The notes beneath the pieces are model-generated. The model worked only from the letters and a program-made list of their open reading frames with translations. It made no database searches and was not told the origin of the DNA. Shown here piece by piece: positions 9,268-28,971 of a stretch of DNA of 32,429 nt. Each line of letters begins with the position of its first letter. The first letter of the stretch is position 1. The position numbers and the translations under genes are program-made. The stretch covers positions 1 to 32,429 of the forward strand of contig NZ_JADEXQ010000071.1 in assembly GCF_015207035.1 (NCBI RefSeq), given 5' to 3'. The stretch comes from Romeriopsis navalis LEGE 11480 (GTDB lineage Bacteria > Cyanobacteriota > Cyanobacteriia > Leptolyngbyales > Leptolyngbyaceae).

Positions 9268-9456
9268 ACACCATGATCTCAAACGGTTGTGCTGGCCTTT
9301 CGCTGATGCGTCGGTTGATCTAGCGGGTGTGATCAGAATTTTGTGTAAATCCTGGTTCCGACCCAGAATTCATAGGGATGTCAGATGCGGTTACACAAAA
9401 TTCTAGACAGCCCCGATCGAGCCGCCAGCCATGGCAGTTGTGTTTGCCGATAATGT

Positions 9457-10022: not shown

Positions 10023-10070
10023 CGCCATGAAAAAGCGCCGGTCAAACTTGACCGGCGCTTTTTCATGGCG
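10023..10070. terminator. 48-bp palindrome, bidirectional terminator
   Basis: The arms 10023-10045 and 10048-10070 are perfect 23-base complements separated by two bases. The GC-rich core (AGCGCCGGTCAA) is flanked by AAAAA on one side and TTTTT on the other, so each strand gives a GC stem followed by a T-run. It lies 24 bases after the lipoprotein gene stop, so its main role is probably ending that minus-strand transcript before the RRM gene. Confidence 0.88.
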
Positions 10071-12630: not shown

Positions 12631-12672
12631 CAACATAAAACCGCGGGGCGATCGCCCCGCGGTTTTATGTTG
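12631..12672. terminator. psbO: 42-bp perfect palindrome centred on a HIP1 site, psbO terminator
   Basis: Bases 12631-12672 form an uninterrupted palindrome: CAACATAAAACCGCGGGGC on the left mirrored on the right, centred on GCGATCGC (12648-12655). AAAA and TTTT blocks flank the GC core, so it can end transcription in both directions. It lies 95 bases after the psbO stop. Confidence 0.85.
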
Positions 12673-13603: not shown

Positions 13604-14108
13604 GGTCAACCTCAAAATGAATGTCAAAATCCCGTATTAGTGTCAATTAAACAATTGCAGCGCGACAACTGGATCAATCAATTGCCACCGGTTGGGTGGC
13701 CGATCGGCTTCCTGAGTCGGAGCCTGCGCCCTAGCAGGATGAATTCGGCATGTCGTCAGACAACATAATCGAACCCATCAGACCCAGAACACATGGAATA
13801 ATTTCGGAGTTTTATGAGAACTCACCTTAGCATTATTACATGGCTCATACACGTCTCAAACCCCTCAGCCGCACTGGTTCGCCGAAAGCTTCGTGTTAAG
13901 TTTTACAACATTTCGGATTAACCCTATGGATCCTGTGACGCAGGATCCATAGGGAGTCGCAGTGATTTATGCTTGGCTTCACTCCTGCTTGTGCGGGTTT
14001 GCCAGGGCGAGTTAGGTTAATTGGGCGGCGAGCATGAACATTTGCTGGCTGTGCGATTAACCGCTGTTATTTCGTTATCGTTTTAAGTGAGGATCGCTGA
14101 GGCTGCGC
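13604..14108. promoter_or_regulatory. psbO: Divergent region upstream of psbO
   Basis: About 500 bases between psbO (minus strand) and the 110-aa gene (plus strand). It must contain the strong psbO promoter. A 14-bp perfect hairpin without a T-run lies in the middle (13922-13954). No other open frame or RNA gene could be supported. Confidence 0.45.
13922..13954. other. 14-bp perfect stem-loop between divergent genes
   Basis: CCCTATGGATCCTG (13922-13935) is exactly complementary to CAGGATCCATAGGG (13941-13954) around TGACG. No T-run follows in either direction, so it does not look like a simple terminator. It lies about 320 bases upstream of psbO and 155 upstream of the next gene. Function unknown. 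Confidence 0.6.
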
Positions 14109-14478: not shown

Positions 14479-14512
14479 AAAAGGGTCGATACCATATGGT
14501 ATCGACCCTTTT
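14479..14512. terminator. 34-bp perfect palindrome, bidirectional terminator
   Basis: AAAAGGGTCGATACCAT (14479-14495) mirrors exactly into 14496-14512, with TTTTGTTT on the plus side and a run of As on the other. It lies between the 110-aa gene and psbM, which converge, and can end both transcripts. Confidence 0.88.
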
Positions 14513-23959: not shown

Positions 23960-25276
23960 TTAGCGGCAGCCGATAAACGGCAGGCAAACTTTTGGACGGA
24001 CTTGATCAATCACGCGATCGACCGCTTGATCCACGGTGGGAATCCCTAAGCCCGGAAATAATTCCTGGGCGGTACGGAGGTAACTATTGACCTGGGCCGT
24101 AGTCCGAGCAAAGCCTGACATCCCAGAAAATCCGACGTCAAAAATACAGCCTTCTAACGTGTCGGCTGGTACTCGTGCCTGCTGGCAGGTTTTCCGGGCT
24201 GCGTTAATCCGCTGGCGCCCCAACATATTTAAGGTCAGATAGTCCTTGGGAAAGGCCATATTCACAAAGCTTGCAGTTGTGCGGCCTGCCGGATAGTCGA
24301 ATAGCGACTCTGCCGCTGATACACGCCAGCTGTTGCCAAACTCTTTGTACATTTGCTTAAAGTACAAGCGCTCGGCACCGCTGAGTGAAACGGGACCCGA
24401 ATTTAATCCGGCAAAGCTCAGGGCTTTACGCACATCACCATAGCTTGATCGCTCCGGCAAAACGCCTTTGCCGCGAATCTGCAGGTCATCCTTGGGATCG
24501 CCATTGAAGTTGCCGAGCAAGCCCTGTACTTGATTGCGCTGAGAGCTGGGCACAAATACCGCGATATTGAAGAATGATTGTTGGCTGACGGTGGATTTTG
24601 CCGCAGTGACTTTCTCGCCAGTTGGCGAGTTGATTACATAAACGTTGCCTTTTAAGGCGATCGCCCCGCCCGTGGGCAGTTTGACTGGGGTTGAACCGAC
24701 TTCTAACGGTTTGCCATTGACCCAAACCACGTGGTTACGATCGCCATCGGGGAAATCTTGGGCATATAAACCGACCCGATCACCACAAATCTGCATAGCG
24801 ACGGCACTATTCAGCGATAGTGATTCGCGCACTGCAGCATGCCGAGCTTGGACCTTAAAGGAATTATTCTGTGAGTCGATCAGCCCGAACTCGCCGACTG
24901 CTTGGAAGCTATAGCGTTTGCCATCCAAGGTTTTAAAGTGAGGGTCGCCATAGCTCCGACCTTGGACTAAATCACCACTGGCGGTCAGTTGGCAGCTGGT
25001 GGGTGGTTTGACCACGGGGTCGCTGGGTCTCGTTGTCGGTGTAACGGTATCGGTGTCGGTTGTTTCTGTTGGCGAAGCCTCAAAAATTTGCTCGACATCG
25101 AGTCCACTCGGAATTTGTGCTTGAGCCAAAAGCTCACCGCCGATCGAGGGTGTCCCCAGCATCAGTCCACTGAGCATGACGGCGATCCCTCGCCGCAGTA
25201 GACCTTCTATACCGATCGCCAATGCGACACCCACCAGAACTAAAATATAGCGGCGAAATTGTCTAAATTTTTGCAT
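23960..25276 (-). CDS. Exported protein with a von Willebrand factor type D domain
   Basis: VWD domains are extracellular modules best known from animal mucins and von Willebrand factor and rarer in bacteria. This 438-residue protein has a basic N terminus with hydrophobic segments (about 11-26 and 31-50, ending GELLAQAQ), consistent with export or anchoring. A Thr/Pro/Asp-rich spacer follows (about 65-93). The VWD core starts at YGDPHFKTLDGKRYSFQAVG (about 109-128), the family hallmark, and closes with VQGLLGNFNGDPKDDL (about 250-265). The C-terminal 130 residues contain FGNSWRVSAAESLFDY, KTCQQARVP, EGCIFDVGFSGMSGFA and a final CLPFIGC. I associate these with the segment that commonly follows bacterial VWD domains. 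Several cysteines could form disulphides. It is co-directional with the exported protein downstream, but a terminator separates them. Confidence 0.9.
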   Translation of the reverse strand: MQKFRQFRRYILVLVGVALAIGIEGLLRRGIAVMLSGLMLGTPSIGGELLAQAQIPSGLDVEQIFEASPTETTDTDTVTPTTRPSDPVVKPPTSCQLTASGDLVQGRSYGDPHFKTLDGKRYSFQAVGEFGLIDSQNNSFKVQARHAAVRESLSLNSAVAMQICGDRVGLYAQDFPDGDRNHVVWVNGKPLEVGSTPVKLPTGGAIALKGNVYVINSPTGEKVTAAKSTVSQQSFFNIAVFVPSSQRNQVQGLLGNFNGDPKDDLQIRGKGVLPERSSYGDVRKALSFAGLNSGPVSLSGAERLYFKQMYKEFGNSWRVSAAESLFDYPAGRTTASFVNMAFPKDYLTLNMLGRQRINAARKTCQQARVPADTLEGCIFDVGFSGMSGFARTTAQVNSYLRTAQELFPGLGIPTVDQAVDRVIDQVRPKVCLPFIGCR

Positions 25277-25438: not shown

Positions 25439-26098
25439 CTAATTCCGCGCCGTGTTATTGGGGTTATTCCCCTTACTGATCGCATCGCGAATATCGGCTA
25501 AATCGATAAACCGATCGGCTAGATTAATCAAATTGTCGTTGGTCATTGAGCGCAGGCTGACCAGCTCAACTTTGACCCCACGATAGGTAATGGCATTGAC
25601 CACATAGGACAGGTCACCATCTCCGCTAAGCAAAATCAGCGTATCGCAATAATTGGCCAGACTCAGCATATCAACGGCCATCTCGACACTGACGTTGGCT
25701 TTTTTCGAGCCATCGGGCATATGGATTAGCTCCTTTGTAATCACCCGATAACCATGTCGCCGTAGCCATAGAATAAAGCCTTGTTGCTTATCATTATGGC
25801 GATCGACCCCCGTATAGAAATAGGGCCGCAGCAAACGTCGCCCGTCCACGAGTTGGCTGAGTAGTTTGGTGTAGTCAATTTCGATTTGTAGATGGACGGC
25901 GGCGTAAAACAGATTGGCTCCATCAATAAAAATGGCAATCCGATCACGGGTGGGACTTACAGGGGATGTACTATCGCGCAGTAGCTCTAGATCCGCTGGT
26001 GCTTCATCATCAGTTGATTGTTTGATCAAAGGGTCCTGATTGCTCTTCGCTCCGTTTTCTTTTGATTCGTTACTTTCTGACATGCGGCGCTCGGCCAT
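25439..26098 (-). CDS. LabA-like NYN domain protein (DUF88)
   Basis: NYN domains share the PIN-like nuclease fold. In Synechococcus elongatus the LabA protein of this family is needed for negative feedback in circadian output. The 219-residue protein is placed at ATG 26098 because GGAGG lies 7 bases upstream (26106-26110); the frame extends upstream but without such support. The N-terminal 50 residues are polar and disordered. The NYN domain begins RIAIFIDGANLFYAAV with the first acidic residue, followed by RPYFYTGVDRHNDKQQGF, VEMAVDMLSLANYCDTLILL and SGDGDLSYVVNAI with the SGDxD active-site motif. Metal-binding acids are all present, so nuclease activity is possible. Being LabA itself, rather than one of its paralogues, cannot be decided here. 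Confidence 0.9.
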   Translation of the reverse strand: MAERRMSESNESKENGAKSNQDPLIKQSTDDEAPADLELLRDSTSPVSPTRDRIAIFIDGANLFYAAVHLQIEIDYTKLLSQLVDGRRLLRPYFYTGVDRHNDKQQGFILWLRRHGYRVITKELIHMPDGSKKANVSVEMAVDMLSLANYCDTLILLSGDGDLSYVVNAITYRGVKVELVSLRSMTNDNLINLADRFIDLADIRDAISKGNNPNNTARN

Positions 26099-26691
26099 CT
26101 CGTAACCTCCAATCCCCAACGAAGCATGACATTTATACAGCGAGTCTAAGCACAATAAAAAATCTCCATCCCTGTCAAAACAACAGGTGGAGCCATACCG
26201 TTACGAATTCGCGGGGGAAGGAATGTTCTTAAAAAGGGGAGTGATCGTGCGTTTGTTGCAGTAACTAAGGCTGAAACTATGGCAGTCTCAGACCTTGTAC
26301 TCAACTCGGCGCATAGCATTGCTATAGACACCTTGACCAGTCATAAAATTGTTGATGTTAAAAAACCCGCACCCAGCGAAATTCGCTAGTGTCGGGAGTA
26401 CAACCCCACGCAAAGGCTCAAAATGCACATCTGCGTAACGGCCCAACCGATGCGCAGCTATTGCCATTAAAAATGGTCAAAGCAGTCATCTAAGGGTTTG
26501 GGTGAAACGGAAGTTTTTATGGTTTTTTATTCTTATGAGCAGATCCTAAAAGGTCTAACTCAGGCACGGATCACAAAGAGATAAGTCTTCACTCACCGCA
26601 ACATTTCGTTATTATTCCACAACTTGGCAGTTTCTGGATGGGTTTCTAAATTTGGTGATGTTGCGTCAGTCCACGCATGTTCATCCGGTTT
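26099..26691. other. Intergenic region between the DUF2993 and LabA-like genes
   Basis: About 590 bases on the path from the DUF2993 gene to the LabA-like gene, both on the minus strand. It holds a probable terminator at 26360-26396 and, to its left, the promoter region of the LabA-like gene. Short frames here show no family features, and I see no RNA gene. Confidence 0.4.
26360..26396 (-). terminator. Imperfect minus-strand terminator after DUF2993
   Basis: CCCG-CAC-AGCG (26366-26378) pairs, with small bulges, with CGCT-GTG-CGGG (26384-26396) around a short loop. On the minus strand six Ts follow (complement of 26360-26365). It is about 300 bases beyond the DUF2993 stop. Confidence 0.6.
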
Positions 26692-27438
26692 TTACGCGGG
26701 TCGTACGAGGAGTTGTCCGGTACAAATAATTTGCGATTCAGCGATCGTTAATGTGGTTAATTCCGTATCCCCCAGATCAAATTCATATCCGTCGAGTTCT
26801 TTGAGTGGTAGTCCCCGTTTGGCCTTGAAGTGGGGTATCCATTGGGGTTGGTGTAGCGTGAGTCGATCTGGTTGAGGCAATTTCAGCCCCGATCGAATGG
26901 CAATTTCGGTGGCTTGACCCGTTTGCGAAATCAGATCAGCGCGGAGGGTCAGGACATCCGGGCGCAGCCGCATTTTGAGATTTTGCAGATTCAAACTCTC
27001 GGTATCAGTGTCGCTGCCGATGGCGCTCGATTTCAGGAGGTCAAGCAAAAATAATTTGATCGCGTCGGCGAGCAGTGGGGCCGCTAGGGACTGATTCAGA
27101 TCTGCTTCATTCAGCTGAATTGTGCCAGTTACAGGAATCGGTTCGAGTAATTGCAGTGCTTGGCCGCGAATCACCTGCTTTAAATTAACGCGGATATTAC
27201 TGCCGGTTAAATCCACATCACTTAAATGGAGTCCTTGATAAACCGCTTGTTGGGCGAGCAGTGTCACTTGGGGAATGGTGCCGGATAAGAGTTGGCGATC
27301 GCCAGCATTAATCGCCACCTGTAACTGTTCAACTGATTCGACTTGTGATTTTAACCAAAGCTGCACGGCGGGGCCGAGGACGCGACTAATAAGGCCTTTG
27401 GCCGGCGCGGCGTTGATTGGCGTATTCGAATCTCCCAT
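26692..27438 (-). CDS. DUF2993 (LmeA-type phospholipid-binding) protein
   Basis: The 248-residue protein is of the DUF2993 family, whose actinobacterial member LmeA binds phospholipids. Typical features are the early LISRVLGPAVQLWLKSQV segment, VEQLQVAINAGDRQLLSGTI, a strand-rich middle with QGLHLSDVDLTGSNIRVNL, VTGTIQLNEADLNQSLAAPL, and a C-terminal strand set (MRLRPDVLTLRADLIS, TTLTIAESQIICTGQLLVRP). No signal peptide is seen: the N terminus is MGDSNTPINAAPAKG, so it may stay cytoplasmic or peripheral to membranes. It starts at an ATG without a strong ribosome binding site. It is divergent from the DUF4912 gene across a region with two large stem-loops. Confidence 0.88.
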   Translation of the reverse strand: MGDSNTPINAAPAKGLISRVLGPAVQLWLKSQVESVEQLQVAINAGDRQLLSGTIPQVTLLAQQAVYQGLHLSDVDLTGSNIRVNLKQVIRGQALQLLEPIPVTGTIQLNEADLNQSLAAPLLADAIKLFLLDLLKSSAIGSDTDTESLNLQNLKMRLRPDVLTLRADLISQTGQATEIAIRSGLKLPQPDRLTLHQPQWIPHFKAKRGLPLKELDGYEFDLGDTELTTLTIAESQIICTGQLLVRPA

Positions 27439-27533: not shown

Positions 27534-27629
27534 TTTCGCGTATTGTCTTGATTTCATGACAATACGCGAAAGGTTTGGGGATCGTTGGCCTTAAAAGTGA
27601 TGAAATCATGACATCTTGATCCCCAAACC
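27534..27629. repeat. Two adjacent stem-loops with complementary loops, divergent intergenic region
   Basis: Hairpin A has a 14-bp perfect stem (27534-27547 with 27558-27571) and a 10-base loop. Hairpin B starts at the next base: a 12-bp perfect stem (GGTTTGGGGATC 27572-27583 with its complement 27618-27629) and a 34-base loop. The loop of A (TGATTTCAT, 27549-27557) is exactly complementary to ATGAAATCA (27600-27608) in the loop of B, so a loop-loop contact is possible. No T-run follows on either strand. It lies between the starts of the DUF2993 and DUF4912 genes, roughly 145-240 bases upstream of the latter. The rest of the 336-base gap shows no gene. Confidence 0.75.
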
Positions 27630-27774
27630 CCCAATAAATACGTCGATCGTGAGTTTAATTACTCATTTAGGGGTTGATCTGCAGCCATGGTTGGCCCATT
27701 ATGGAGATCAGTAACAAGCAACTAGCGATCCCCAAATCGACTAATCTACGCATTTAAATGCTGAGGTGCCCAAT

Positions 27775-28971
27775 ATGTTTAGTAATAGTCTTCCCTTGAC
27801 CGAAATGACCCTACGGCAATTGCGTCGTGTGGCAAGTCTTCTGGGTATTTCTCGTTATAGTCGGATGCGTAAGGATCAGCTGCTTGCCTCGATCGTAGAG
27901 AAACAAGGTGATACGGATGCTCAGACTATGGTAGAGACAGCGAAGAAGGATACGGATACAACTGTCGATGTTGCTTTGGCGGATGTGGATGCGGCGTTAC
28001 CGGATTTGCCAGGGGGCTACGGTGCGAGTCAGATTTTCTTGATGCCGCGTGATCCGCAGTGGGCTTACGCTTACTGGGATGTGGCGAACGAGCGTAAGGA
28101 AGAGTTGCGTCAGCAAGGTGGCCAGCAATTGGCGCTACGTTTGTACGATGTCACTGGAATTGATATCAATAATCAGTCGCCTCACAACTTGCAAGAGTAT
28201 GGTTGTGATGAGATGACGCGTGAATGGTATTTGCCGATTCCGGTCAGCGATCGCGACTATATGTTGGAAATTGGTTATCGCACTTGGGATGGTCGCTGGT
28301 TGATGCTGGCACGTTCTGAGTCAATGCGGGTGCCGCCGGTATATCCCTCTGACTGGGTCGAAGATCACTTCGTTGCGGTTGATTGGGAGCAAGAGCTGCG
28401 TGGTCAAACGATTATGACCTTGGTGCCACCGAGTCAGAAGCCTGCGGCAACACCGGGTGCGATGCCCACTGCGCATGAATCAGTCTTCGGCATGGCAGCC
28501 GAGGCTGAAGCAATGCGGATGTCGGGTTCGCTCTACGGTTCGATGCAGCATATGCCGAGTTCGGCTCAGCCAATCGAATCCCTCAGCTCCTATGTCTTCC
28601 CTTCGGGCGTTGGCATGTGGGCGATGCCGAATGCTTCCGGCCTAACAATGTCGGGCGTCGGTATGGGTGCTTCGATGCCGCCGGTACAGCCGCGGAAGTT
28701 CTGGTTGATTGCCGATGCTGAGCTGATTGTTTACGGTGCAACTGAGCCAGATGCCACAGTCTATGTGGACGGTGAGCCGATCCAGCTCAACTCCGATGGA
28801 ACATTCCGGTTCCAGGTCTCTTTCCAGGATGGTCAACTCCGCTTCCCAATCTTCGCAGTAGCCGCTGATGGTGAGCAGAACCGGGCGATTCATATGGACT
28901 TCGAGCGCCAGACGCTAGAGCGCCGGACGAATACGAAGGAAGAAGCACAACTGGAATGGCTGCCGAACTAG
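27775..28971 (+). CDS. DUF4912 protein with N-terminal Rho-N/SAP-like helices and a C-terminal Ig-like domain
   Basis: This 398-residue modular protein is of unknown function. Residues 8-42 (LTEMTLRQLRRVASLLGISR, MRKDQLLASI) form the helix-extended-helix seen in Rho N-terminal and SAP-like nucleic acid-binding modules. DUF4912 follows at about 80-210, with SQIFLMPRDPQWAYAYWDV, LALRLYDVTGID, EWYLPIPVSDRDYMLEIGYR and VDWEQEL. A linker of about 80 residues is rich in Met, Ser, Gly and Pro. The C-terminal segment FWLIADAELIVYGATEPDAT, VYVDGEPIQLNSDGTFRFQV is a small bacterial Ig-like beta domain. The ATG at 27775 is preferred over GTG 27766 because GAGG (27763-27766) is then 8 bases upstream. No signal peptide or membrane helix. 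A terminator follows at 29047. Confidence 0.88.
   Translation: MFSNSLPLTEMTLRQLRRVASLLGISRYSRMRKDQLLASIVEKQGDTDAQTMVETAKKDTDTTVDVALADVDAALPDLPGGYGASQIFLMPRDPQWAYAYWDVANERKEELRQQGGQQLALRLYDVTGIDINNQSPHNLQEYGCDEMTREWYLPIPVSDRDYMLEIGYRTWDGRWLMLARSESMRVPPVYPSDWVEDHFVAVDWEQELRGQTIMTLVPPSQKPAATPGAMPTAHESVFGMAAEAEAMRMSGSLYGSMQHMPSSAQPIESLSSYVFPSGVGMWAMPNASGLTMSGVGMGASMPPVQPRKFWLIADAELIVYGATEPDATVYVDGEPIQLNSDGTFRFQVSFQDGQLRFPIFAVAADGEQNRAIHMDFERQTLERRTNTKEEAQLEWLPN

What the first reader, a model, noticed from the sequence alone, without database searches (positions are those of the whole stretch)
27534..27629. Two back-to-back stem-loops with complementary loops between divergent genes
Hairpin A (14-bp perfect stem) and hairpin B (12-bp perfect stem) are directly adjacent. 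Nine bases of A's ten-base loop (27549-27557) are an exact complement of 27600-27608 in B's loop, and the similarity extends to about 14 of 16 bases. There is no T-run, so a plain terminator is unlikely. Possible explanations are a regulatory RNA leader with a kissing contact, a protein-binding operator, or a small palindromic mobile repeat.
Basis: partly seen in the sequence, partly recalled or inferred. Interest (0 to 1): 0.62.

Follow-up and report, generated by a model that had tools for sequence, protein, structure and literature searches.

The report
Paired helix-phased operators before a cyanobacterial gene
The two hairpins are this genome's elaborated version of a pair of probable protein-binding DNA sites, found across cyanobacteria in front of one uncharacterised gene and mostly kept a whole number of DNA turns apart, so they are probably a gene switch rather than an RNA structure.

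Summary
In detail: two adjacent perfect hairpins (14 and 12 bp) with nine complementary loop bases. The cause is not a kissing RNA: each loop region holds a copy of one near-palindrome, ATGTCA-N8-TGACAT, centres 52 bp apart. Upstream of the Rho_N + DUF4912 gene (ATG 27775) the site recurs in 29 of 29 same-family loci examined and in 19 of 23 one-per-family cyanobacterial genomes. A GTDB scan for site plus GATCCC gave 102 stretches: 92 precede this gene, 4 cyanobacterial ones are cut off, 6 are other bacteria. Where a second site is found, distances cluster at whole turns of about 10.5 bp. The proximal site lies 78-81 bp before a predicted -35 in 90 of 100 loci. Half-site changes are almost never compensated; the long stems are lineage-specific. 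Best reading: a dimeric transcription factor binds both sites on one helix face and controls this gene, probably by activation. The factor is unknown; PpsR/CrtJ shares the consensus, but none passed the family cut-off in 20 genomes.

The parts
27534..27571 (.). Hairpin A: distal operator plus a 10-bp lineage-specific extension of the inverted repeat on each side
27543..27562 (+). Distal operator (TTGTCTTGATTTCATGACAA, 9 of 10 half-site bases)
   Evidence: 52 bp from the proximal operator
27572..27629 (.). Hairpin B: proximal operator lying off-centre between GGGGATC and GATCCCC arms
27595..27614 (+). Proximal operator (AAGTGATGAAATCATGACAT, 8 of 10 half-site bases)
   Evidence: position matches the orthologs, 79 bp before the predicted -35
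27618..27623 (+). GATCCC box next to the proximal operator
   Evidence: GATCCC about 9 per kb in the control region on the gene strand of 72 loci (one copy per locus imposed by the pattern) against 0.2 per kb elsewhere in those loci
27632..27643 (+). Block resembling the weak consensus aaAA.tcgt, about 31-42 bp upstream of the -35
   Evidence: consensus of 97 aligned loci
27674..27679 (+). Predicted -35 (TTGATC)
   Evidence: conserved position in orthologs; the generic promoter scan did not report it
27697..27702 (+). Predicted -10 (CATTAT), 17-bp spacer
27725..27733 (+). GCGATCCCC box downstream of the predicted start of transcription
   Evidence: in many orthologs a GATC box comes about 10-16 nt after the -10; in the window this one starts 22 nt after it, with another GATC at 27706
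27775..28971 (+). Gene thought to be regulated: Rho_N + DUF4912 protein, 398 aa
   Evidence: Pfam PF07498, PF16258; a match in 23 of 23 one-per-family genomes of the class
26692..27438 (-). Divergent LmeA-like gene; neighbour in part of the lineages only
   Evidence: Pfam PF11209; found in 23 of the 102 scan loci, some of which are cut short

Best explanation
The feature is a pair of palindromic operators (consensus ATGTCA-tgaWWtca-TGACAT) for a dimeric transcription factor that controls the Rho_N-DUF4912 gene. The proximal operator is held about 105 bp upstream of the predicted start of transcription, next to a GATCCC box. The distal operator sits a whole number of helical turns further upstream, so two dimers lie on the same face of the DNA and probably bind cooperatively, the DNA between them bending or looping. 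Shown by sequence comparison: recurrence, near-restriction of the full motif to one gene, phasing, near-fixed promoter distance, lack of stem compensation. Inferred: that a protein binds, that binding is cooperative, and that the effect is activation (sites lie upstream of a -35 that goes with a poor -10). The long perfect stems in this genome are secondary, perhaps made by template switching during replication at a quasi-palindrome.
For: All 29 same-family loci examined (window included; 29 of the 41 genomes with the gene, loci being capped) have at least one site at 8/10 or better within 450 bp of the start, against a mean of 5.7 sites over all 29 shuffled regions. 19 of 23 one-per-family genomes have a site, against a mean of 0.6 in shuffles and 0 in the first 800 bp of the genes. 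GTDB scan: 92 of 102 stretches are upstream of this gene, with the motif on the gene's strand in the 72 checked and the 20. Distal-site distances: over periods of 5-30 bp the best is 10.5 (R 0.75, 72 loci; distinct values R about 0.62); mean phase 0.06 bp from whole turns, and 10 of 100000 random sets of 20 distinct distances as regular; 12 path-disjoint pairs on a tree R 0.68, 11 of 100000. Without 9 duplicate contigs, R is 0.74 over 66 of 92 loci. Proximal site to -35: 78-81 bp in 90 of 100 scored loci; TTG at that distance in 16 of 20 loci not used before. Distal half-site pairs: 40 single changes break pairing, 12 give G-T, 1 compensated. In 15 loci no other neighbour recurs in more than 4.
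Against: 4 of 23 families show no site (L194, L197, L198, L203). 29 of 101 loci have no distal site above the shuffle threshold, in 4 of them because the proximal site was mis-assigned; several Planktothrix and Pseudanabaena loci seem to have one site only, and of the 20 later loci only 9 reach 8/10, at 42, 51, 51, 52, 55, 56, 63, 120 and 169 bp; 120 is out of phase, 55 and 56 are borderline. In the window both sites are degenerate (9/10 and 8/10). Four Pseudanabaena-type loci put the best -35 at 149 bp, L142 at 119, L080 at 92. Two of the 12 independent pairs are out of phase (differences of 7 and 8). The site without GATCCC also occurs at 16 other places in 42 family genomes, against 6 for the reversed control pattern. 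No binding, transcript or start-site data; the generic promoter scan finds none in the window. The factor is unidentified.
Confidence: 0.87

Rival explanations
1. A structured RNA leader: both hairpins are transcribed and their loops kiss to control the downstream or the divergent gene.
For: Very stable folds on both strands; nine complementary loop bases.
Against: No Rfam family at the gathering score. Half-site changes uncompensated. Long stems in few loci only. Sites lie upstream of the conserved predicted promoter. Whole-turn spacing is a property of duplex DNA.
Confidence: 0.04
2. The operators are autoregulatory: the Rho_N-DUF4912 protein, or a complex holding it, binds its own promoter.
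For: The full site with GATCCC is almost private to this gene in the scan; no other neighbour is conserved (15 loci); the Rho_N domain is a possible nucleic-acid binder (recalled).
Against: Pfam shows no classical DNA-binding domain; the structure model is of low confidence and its better parts are a helical N-terminus and beta-sandwich domains. 4 of 23 genomes have the gene but no site found.
Confidence: 0.18
3. A bidirectional switch serving both LmeA and the Rho_N-DUF4912 gene.
For: The sites lie between the two divergent genes here and in part of the lineages.
Against: LmeA was found in only 23 of 102 scan loci and 8 of 23 class loci (short loci can miss it), while the sites remain; the motif with GATCCC lies on the strand of the Rho_N-DUF4912 gene.
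Confidence: 0.2
4. A dispersed palindromic repeat, or chance hairpins, with no regulatory role.
For: The window holds other strong hairpins.
Against: Single copy in its genome; recurs at the orthologous place across families.
Confidence: 0.02

Closest known systems
PpsR/CrtJ operators of purple bacteria (TGTcaN8tgACA)
   Same: Same written consensus, two sites per promoter, cooperative binding that depends on spacing (passages of PMC2654016, and PMC4452267).
   Different: No match over the PpsR/CrtJ family cut-off in 20 genomes including the own one; the target is one uncharacterised gene, not photosynthesis operons; a GATCCC box is attached.
Helix-phased cooperative operator pairs such as those of lambda CI, LacI and AraC (recalled)
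   Same: Two sites whose separation is kept at whole helical turns.
   Different: Here inferred from evolution only; protein unknown; the pair lies upstream of the promoter.
GntR-family operators, including the cyanobacteria-only PlmA subfamily (lead from passages of PMC4494728)
   Same: Palindrome with GT...AC; PlmA occurs in cyanobacteria only.
   Different: No PlmA motif appeared in the passages seen; nothing tested here links PlmA to this site.

Membership tests
Helix-phased operator pair (mechanistic class) | Two copies of a dyad-symmetric site in one promoter region | tested here: met
   a second copy was not found in every locus
Helix-phased operator pair (mechanistic class) | Separation a whole number of helical turns | tested here: met
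   with a few out-of-phase loci
Helix-phased operator pair (mechanistic class) | Cooperative binding of a protein | not testable with these tools
   needs gel shift or footprinting
PpsR/CrtJ regulon | Paired TGT-N12-ACA palindromes | tested here: inconclusive
   met by site A and by many orthologs; site B of the window begins AGT, not TGT; definition
PpsR/CrtJ regulon | A PpsR/CrtJ protein in the genome | tested here: not met
   0 of 20 genomes over the TIGR02040 cut-off; 19 of 20 have weak partial matches below it
Regulatory RNA leader / kissing hairpins | Compensatory changes in the stem | tested here: not met
   1 compensated against 40 broken cells in 62 distal sites, 0 against 6 in 29 family proximal sites; covers the operator half-site stem, not the window-only extensions
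Regulatory RNA leader / kissing hairpins | Lies within a transcript | tested here: inconclusive
   predicted promoter lies downstream of it; no RNA data
Dispersed palindromic repeat (REP/MITE-like) | Several copies per genome | tested here: not met

The most novel reading that the evidence does not exclude
The Rho_N-DUF4912 protein is itself a cyanobacteria-wide DNA-binding regulator of an undescribed kind that controls its own gene through a helix-phased operator pair plus GATCCC boxes.
Probability: 0.15. Interest if true: 0.78.

Novelty: new member of a known kind. Interest (0 to 1): 0.57.

Why it matters
A promoter architecture kept in most cyanobacterial families examined, and in its full form found almost only before a single uncharacterised gene, suggests that the dose of this protein is tightly controlled. 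The whole-turn spacing is a natural experiment on cooperative binding of proteins along DNA and gives an immediate bench test. The site is also a ready bait for finding an unknown, probably old, cyanobacterial regulator.

Tried and rejected
Rejected: an intrinsic terminator (no T-run); a known RNA family; a dispersed repeat; a kissing RNA; membership in the PpsR regulon. Whole-region DNA searches of 58 genomes gave only weak hits, but some fell upstream of the orthologous gene, which led to the ortholog comparison. Solved-structure search of the protein gave nothing better than E 0.11. The AlphaFold model was of low confidence (mean pLDDT 55.7) and Foldseek gave weak FnIII-like matches, so no function is drawn from them. 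NCBIfam: no family for either gene. Plasmid search: no match.

Other sites: ATGTCAN8TGACAT without GATCCC occurs at 36 places in 42 family genomes, 20 at this gene and 16 elsewhere, against 6 for the reversed control pattern (sorted by coordinates, and for G064). Of the 16, 12 were inspected; 2 lie inside long reading frames, two pairs are shared intergenic places within one genus each (L217/L218, L221/L222), so minor further targets in some lineages are not excluded. In the own genome the full pattern with up to 2 mismatches gave site B and one poor match.

Literature: searches (open-access library only) listed no paper describing this gene or element in cyanobacteria; listings were seen, and passages of PMC2654016, PMC4452267, PMC5083789, PMC4494728, PMC8147232, PMC11237433, PMC2920276 (genome-wide site prediction, 14 cyanobacteria; its supplementary motif tables could not be read) and PMC7713314 (DUF4912 named in a cotton table). 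Most listed papers were not opened. The Anabaena protein all2705, called Rho termination factor in a table of PMC8147232, may be the ortholog; not verified.

Rows dropped before counts: L066 (taken for a paralog); the 8 listed scan loci without the gene or cut off; the 22 stretches not listed were left out and examined only; L090 (score too low) from the 100; distances over 110 bp from the distinct-value test and; 4 of 71 loci without a long enough protein match, and spacing differences under 5. 9 of the 101 loci are contigs held twice (contig lengths; removed). The site scores and the promoter score were hand-weighted by me. Shuffles keep base composition only.

Full report
Observation. Stems of this length are above chance for the window's composition, though seven others of 11-22 bp occur in the window, and the fold of either strand is far more stable than in shuffles. 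The nine-base loop complementarity is exact. It has a simple cause: each loop region carries a copy of one near-palindrome, TGTCATGAWWTCATGACA, and two copies of a palindrome are complementary to each other by nature.

Setting. The segment lies between an LmeA-like gene (26692-27438, -) and a gene for a 398-aa protein with Rho_N and DUF4912 domains (27775-28971, +). The genome (6.47 Mb, 251 contigs) holds no second copy of the segment, and Rfam has no match at its gathering scores.

Comparison within the family. The protein has matches in 41 of 42 same-family genomes; loci were held for 30, one of them taken for a paralog and dropped. The upstream regions were oriented and read. All 29 show at least one TGTCA-N8-TGACA site at 8 of 10 bases or better; 23 list two or more, some of these surely spurious, such as the overlapping pair in L064. 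The long perfect stems are not conserved: most sites are short palindromes.

Comparison across the class. The protein has a match in 23 of 23 one-per-family genomes, and 19 of these have a site upstream, against a mean of 0.6 in shuffled sequence and none in the first 800 bp of the genes. An exact scan of the GTDB collection for ATGTCAN8TGACATNNNGATCCC found 102 stretches. Of these, 92 lie upstream of this gene; 4 are cyanobacterial loci that end before the gene would be complete (L088, L109, L120, L173); 6 are other bacteria without the gene, close to the seven or eight expected by chance (my estimate). Two of the 92, L119 and L175, carry non-cyanobacterial labels and are probably mis-binned. 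These loci were selected for the proximal site, so they show that the full motif is almost private to one gene, not how common it is. The shorter pattern without GATCCC is less exclusive: in 42 family genomes 20 places are at this gene and 16 elsewhere, against 6 for the reversed control.

Spacing. The distal site was sought by a sequence score alone, 20-260 bp upstream of the proximal one, in 101 loci (72 from the scan, 29 from the family). In 72 the best candidate exceeds the 95% quantile of shuffles. The distances fall at 41-43, 51-56, 62-65, 74-76, 82-84, 93 and 104 bp, with others at 34, 39 and 178-179; among periods of 5-30 bp the best fit is 10.5. With a simpler criterion and four proximal sites re-assigned, the mean phase of the 56 better sites is 0.06 bp from whole turns, and 10 of 100000 random sets of 20 distinct distances are as regular. 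Twelve path-disjoint pairs on a protein tree give R 0.68; 11 of 100000 random sets do as well; two pairs (differences of 7 and 8) are out of phase. Leaving out nine contigs held twice changes little (R 0.74, 66 of 92 loci). In the 20 scan loci not used before, 9 have a distal candidate at 8/10 or better: 42, 51, 51, 52, 55, 56, 63, 120 and 169 bp; most but not all fit (two of the 20 are contigs already seen in the family set). The window's own spacing is 52 bp, five turns.

Promoter. In 90 of 100 scored loci a -35-like hexamer, sought 30-190 bp downstream, lies 78-81 bp from the start of the proximal site, mostly TTGACC or TTGATC with a 17-bp spacer and a weak -10 such as CAACAT. With corrected proximal sites, 97 of 101 have TTG at that distance, 88 of 92 without duplicates, and 16 of 20 later loci; TTG alone is a lenient test. 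Pseudanabaena-type loci differ. In the window the elements are TTGATC 27674-27679 and CATTAT 27697-27702, which put the start of transcription near 27709 and the proximal operator centre near -105. The generic scan does not report this promoter; the case rests on conserved position. GATCCC boxes are concentrated here on the gene's strand: 210 in 23 kb of 72 loci (72 of them imposed by the search pattern), about 9 per kb, against 0.2 per kb elsewhere in those loci.

DNA site or RNA stem. In 62 distinct distal sites, 257 half-site pairs are unchanged, 40 single changes break the pair, 12 give G-T and one is compensated; in 29 family proximal sites 132, 6, 7 and 0. The distal sites were chosen for closeness to the consensus, which disfavours double changes, but single broken pairs are tolerated. 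Pairing across the central eight bases is no better than in shuffles. Together with whole-turn spacing and position upstream of the promoter, this fits protein binding to duplex DNA and not an RNA structure. The two window stems go beyond the operators: A gains 10 bp on each side, B pairs GGTTTGGGGATC with GATCCCCAAACC off-centre. Symmetric GGGATC...GATCCC flanks occur in nine other loci, and unrelated long extensions at L065 and L158. Template switching at a quasi-palindrome would make such stems; that is inference.

Mechanism and identity. The most likely mechanism is cooperative binding of two dimers on one face of the helix, controlling the Rho_N-DUF4912 gene, more probably as activator than repressor. 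The same written consensus belongs to PpsR/CrtJ of purple bacteria (passages), also with paired sites, but no match over the family cut-off exists in 20 genomes tested. PlmA, a cyanobacteria-only GntR regulator (passages), and the gene product itself are candidates without direct evidence. The product's model is of low confidence, and its function stays unknown.

Noticed in passing
window 9335-9404, 10023-10070, 12631-12672, 13922-13954, 14479-14512: Five further perfect inverted repeats with stems of 14-22 bp, above chance; some look like two-way terminators.
   Followed up: no
window 23960-25276 (-): Protein with a von Willebrand factor type D domain (Pfam PF00094, E 4e-15), which seems unusual in a bacterium.
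   Followed up: no
window 25439-26155 (-): NYN-domain protein (Pfam PF01936) next to the LmeA gene.
   Followed up: no
L104, L143 (Planktothrix): The orthologous protein is much longer (624 and 790 aa read); in L104 its middle is a long run of SGVGYTQ-like repeats.
   Followed up: no
L119 (titled Tatlockia sp. MAG) and L175 (titled Chloroflexaceae MAG): Both hold the cyanobacterial gene and operator; probably mislabelled or contaminated bins.
   Followed up: no
L217/L218 and L221/L222, near position 1500: Intergenic ATGTCAN8TGACAT sites shared by two genomes of one genus each, beside gpsA-like and pdxA/dapF-like genes (names by eye from the sequence); possible further targets.
   Followed up: partly
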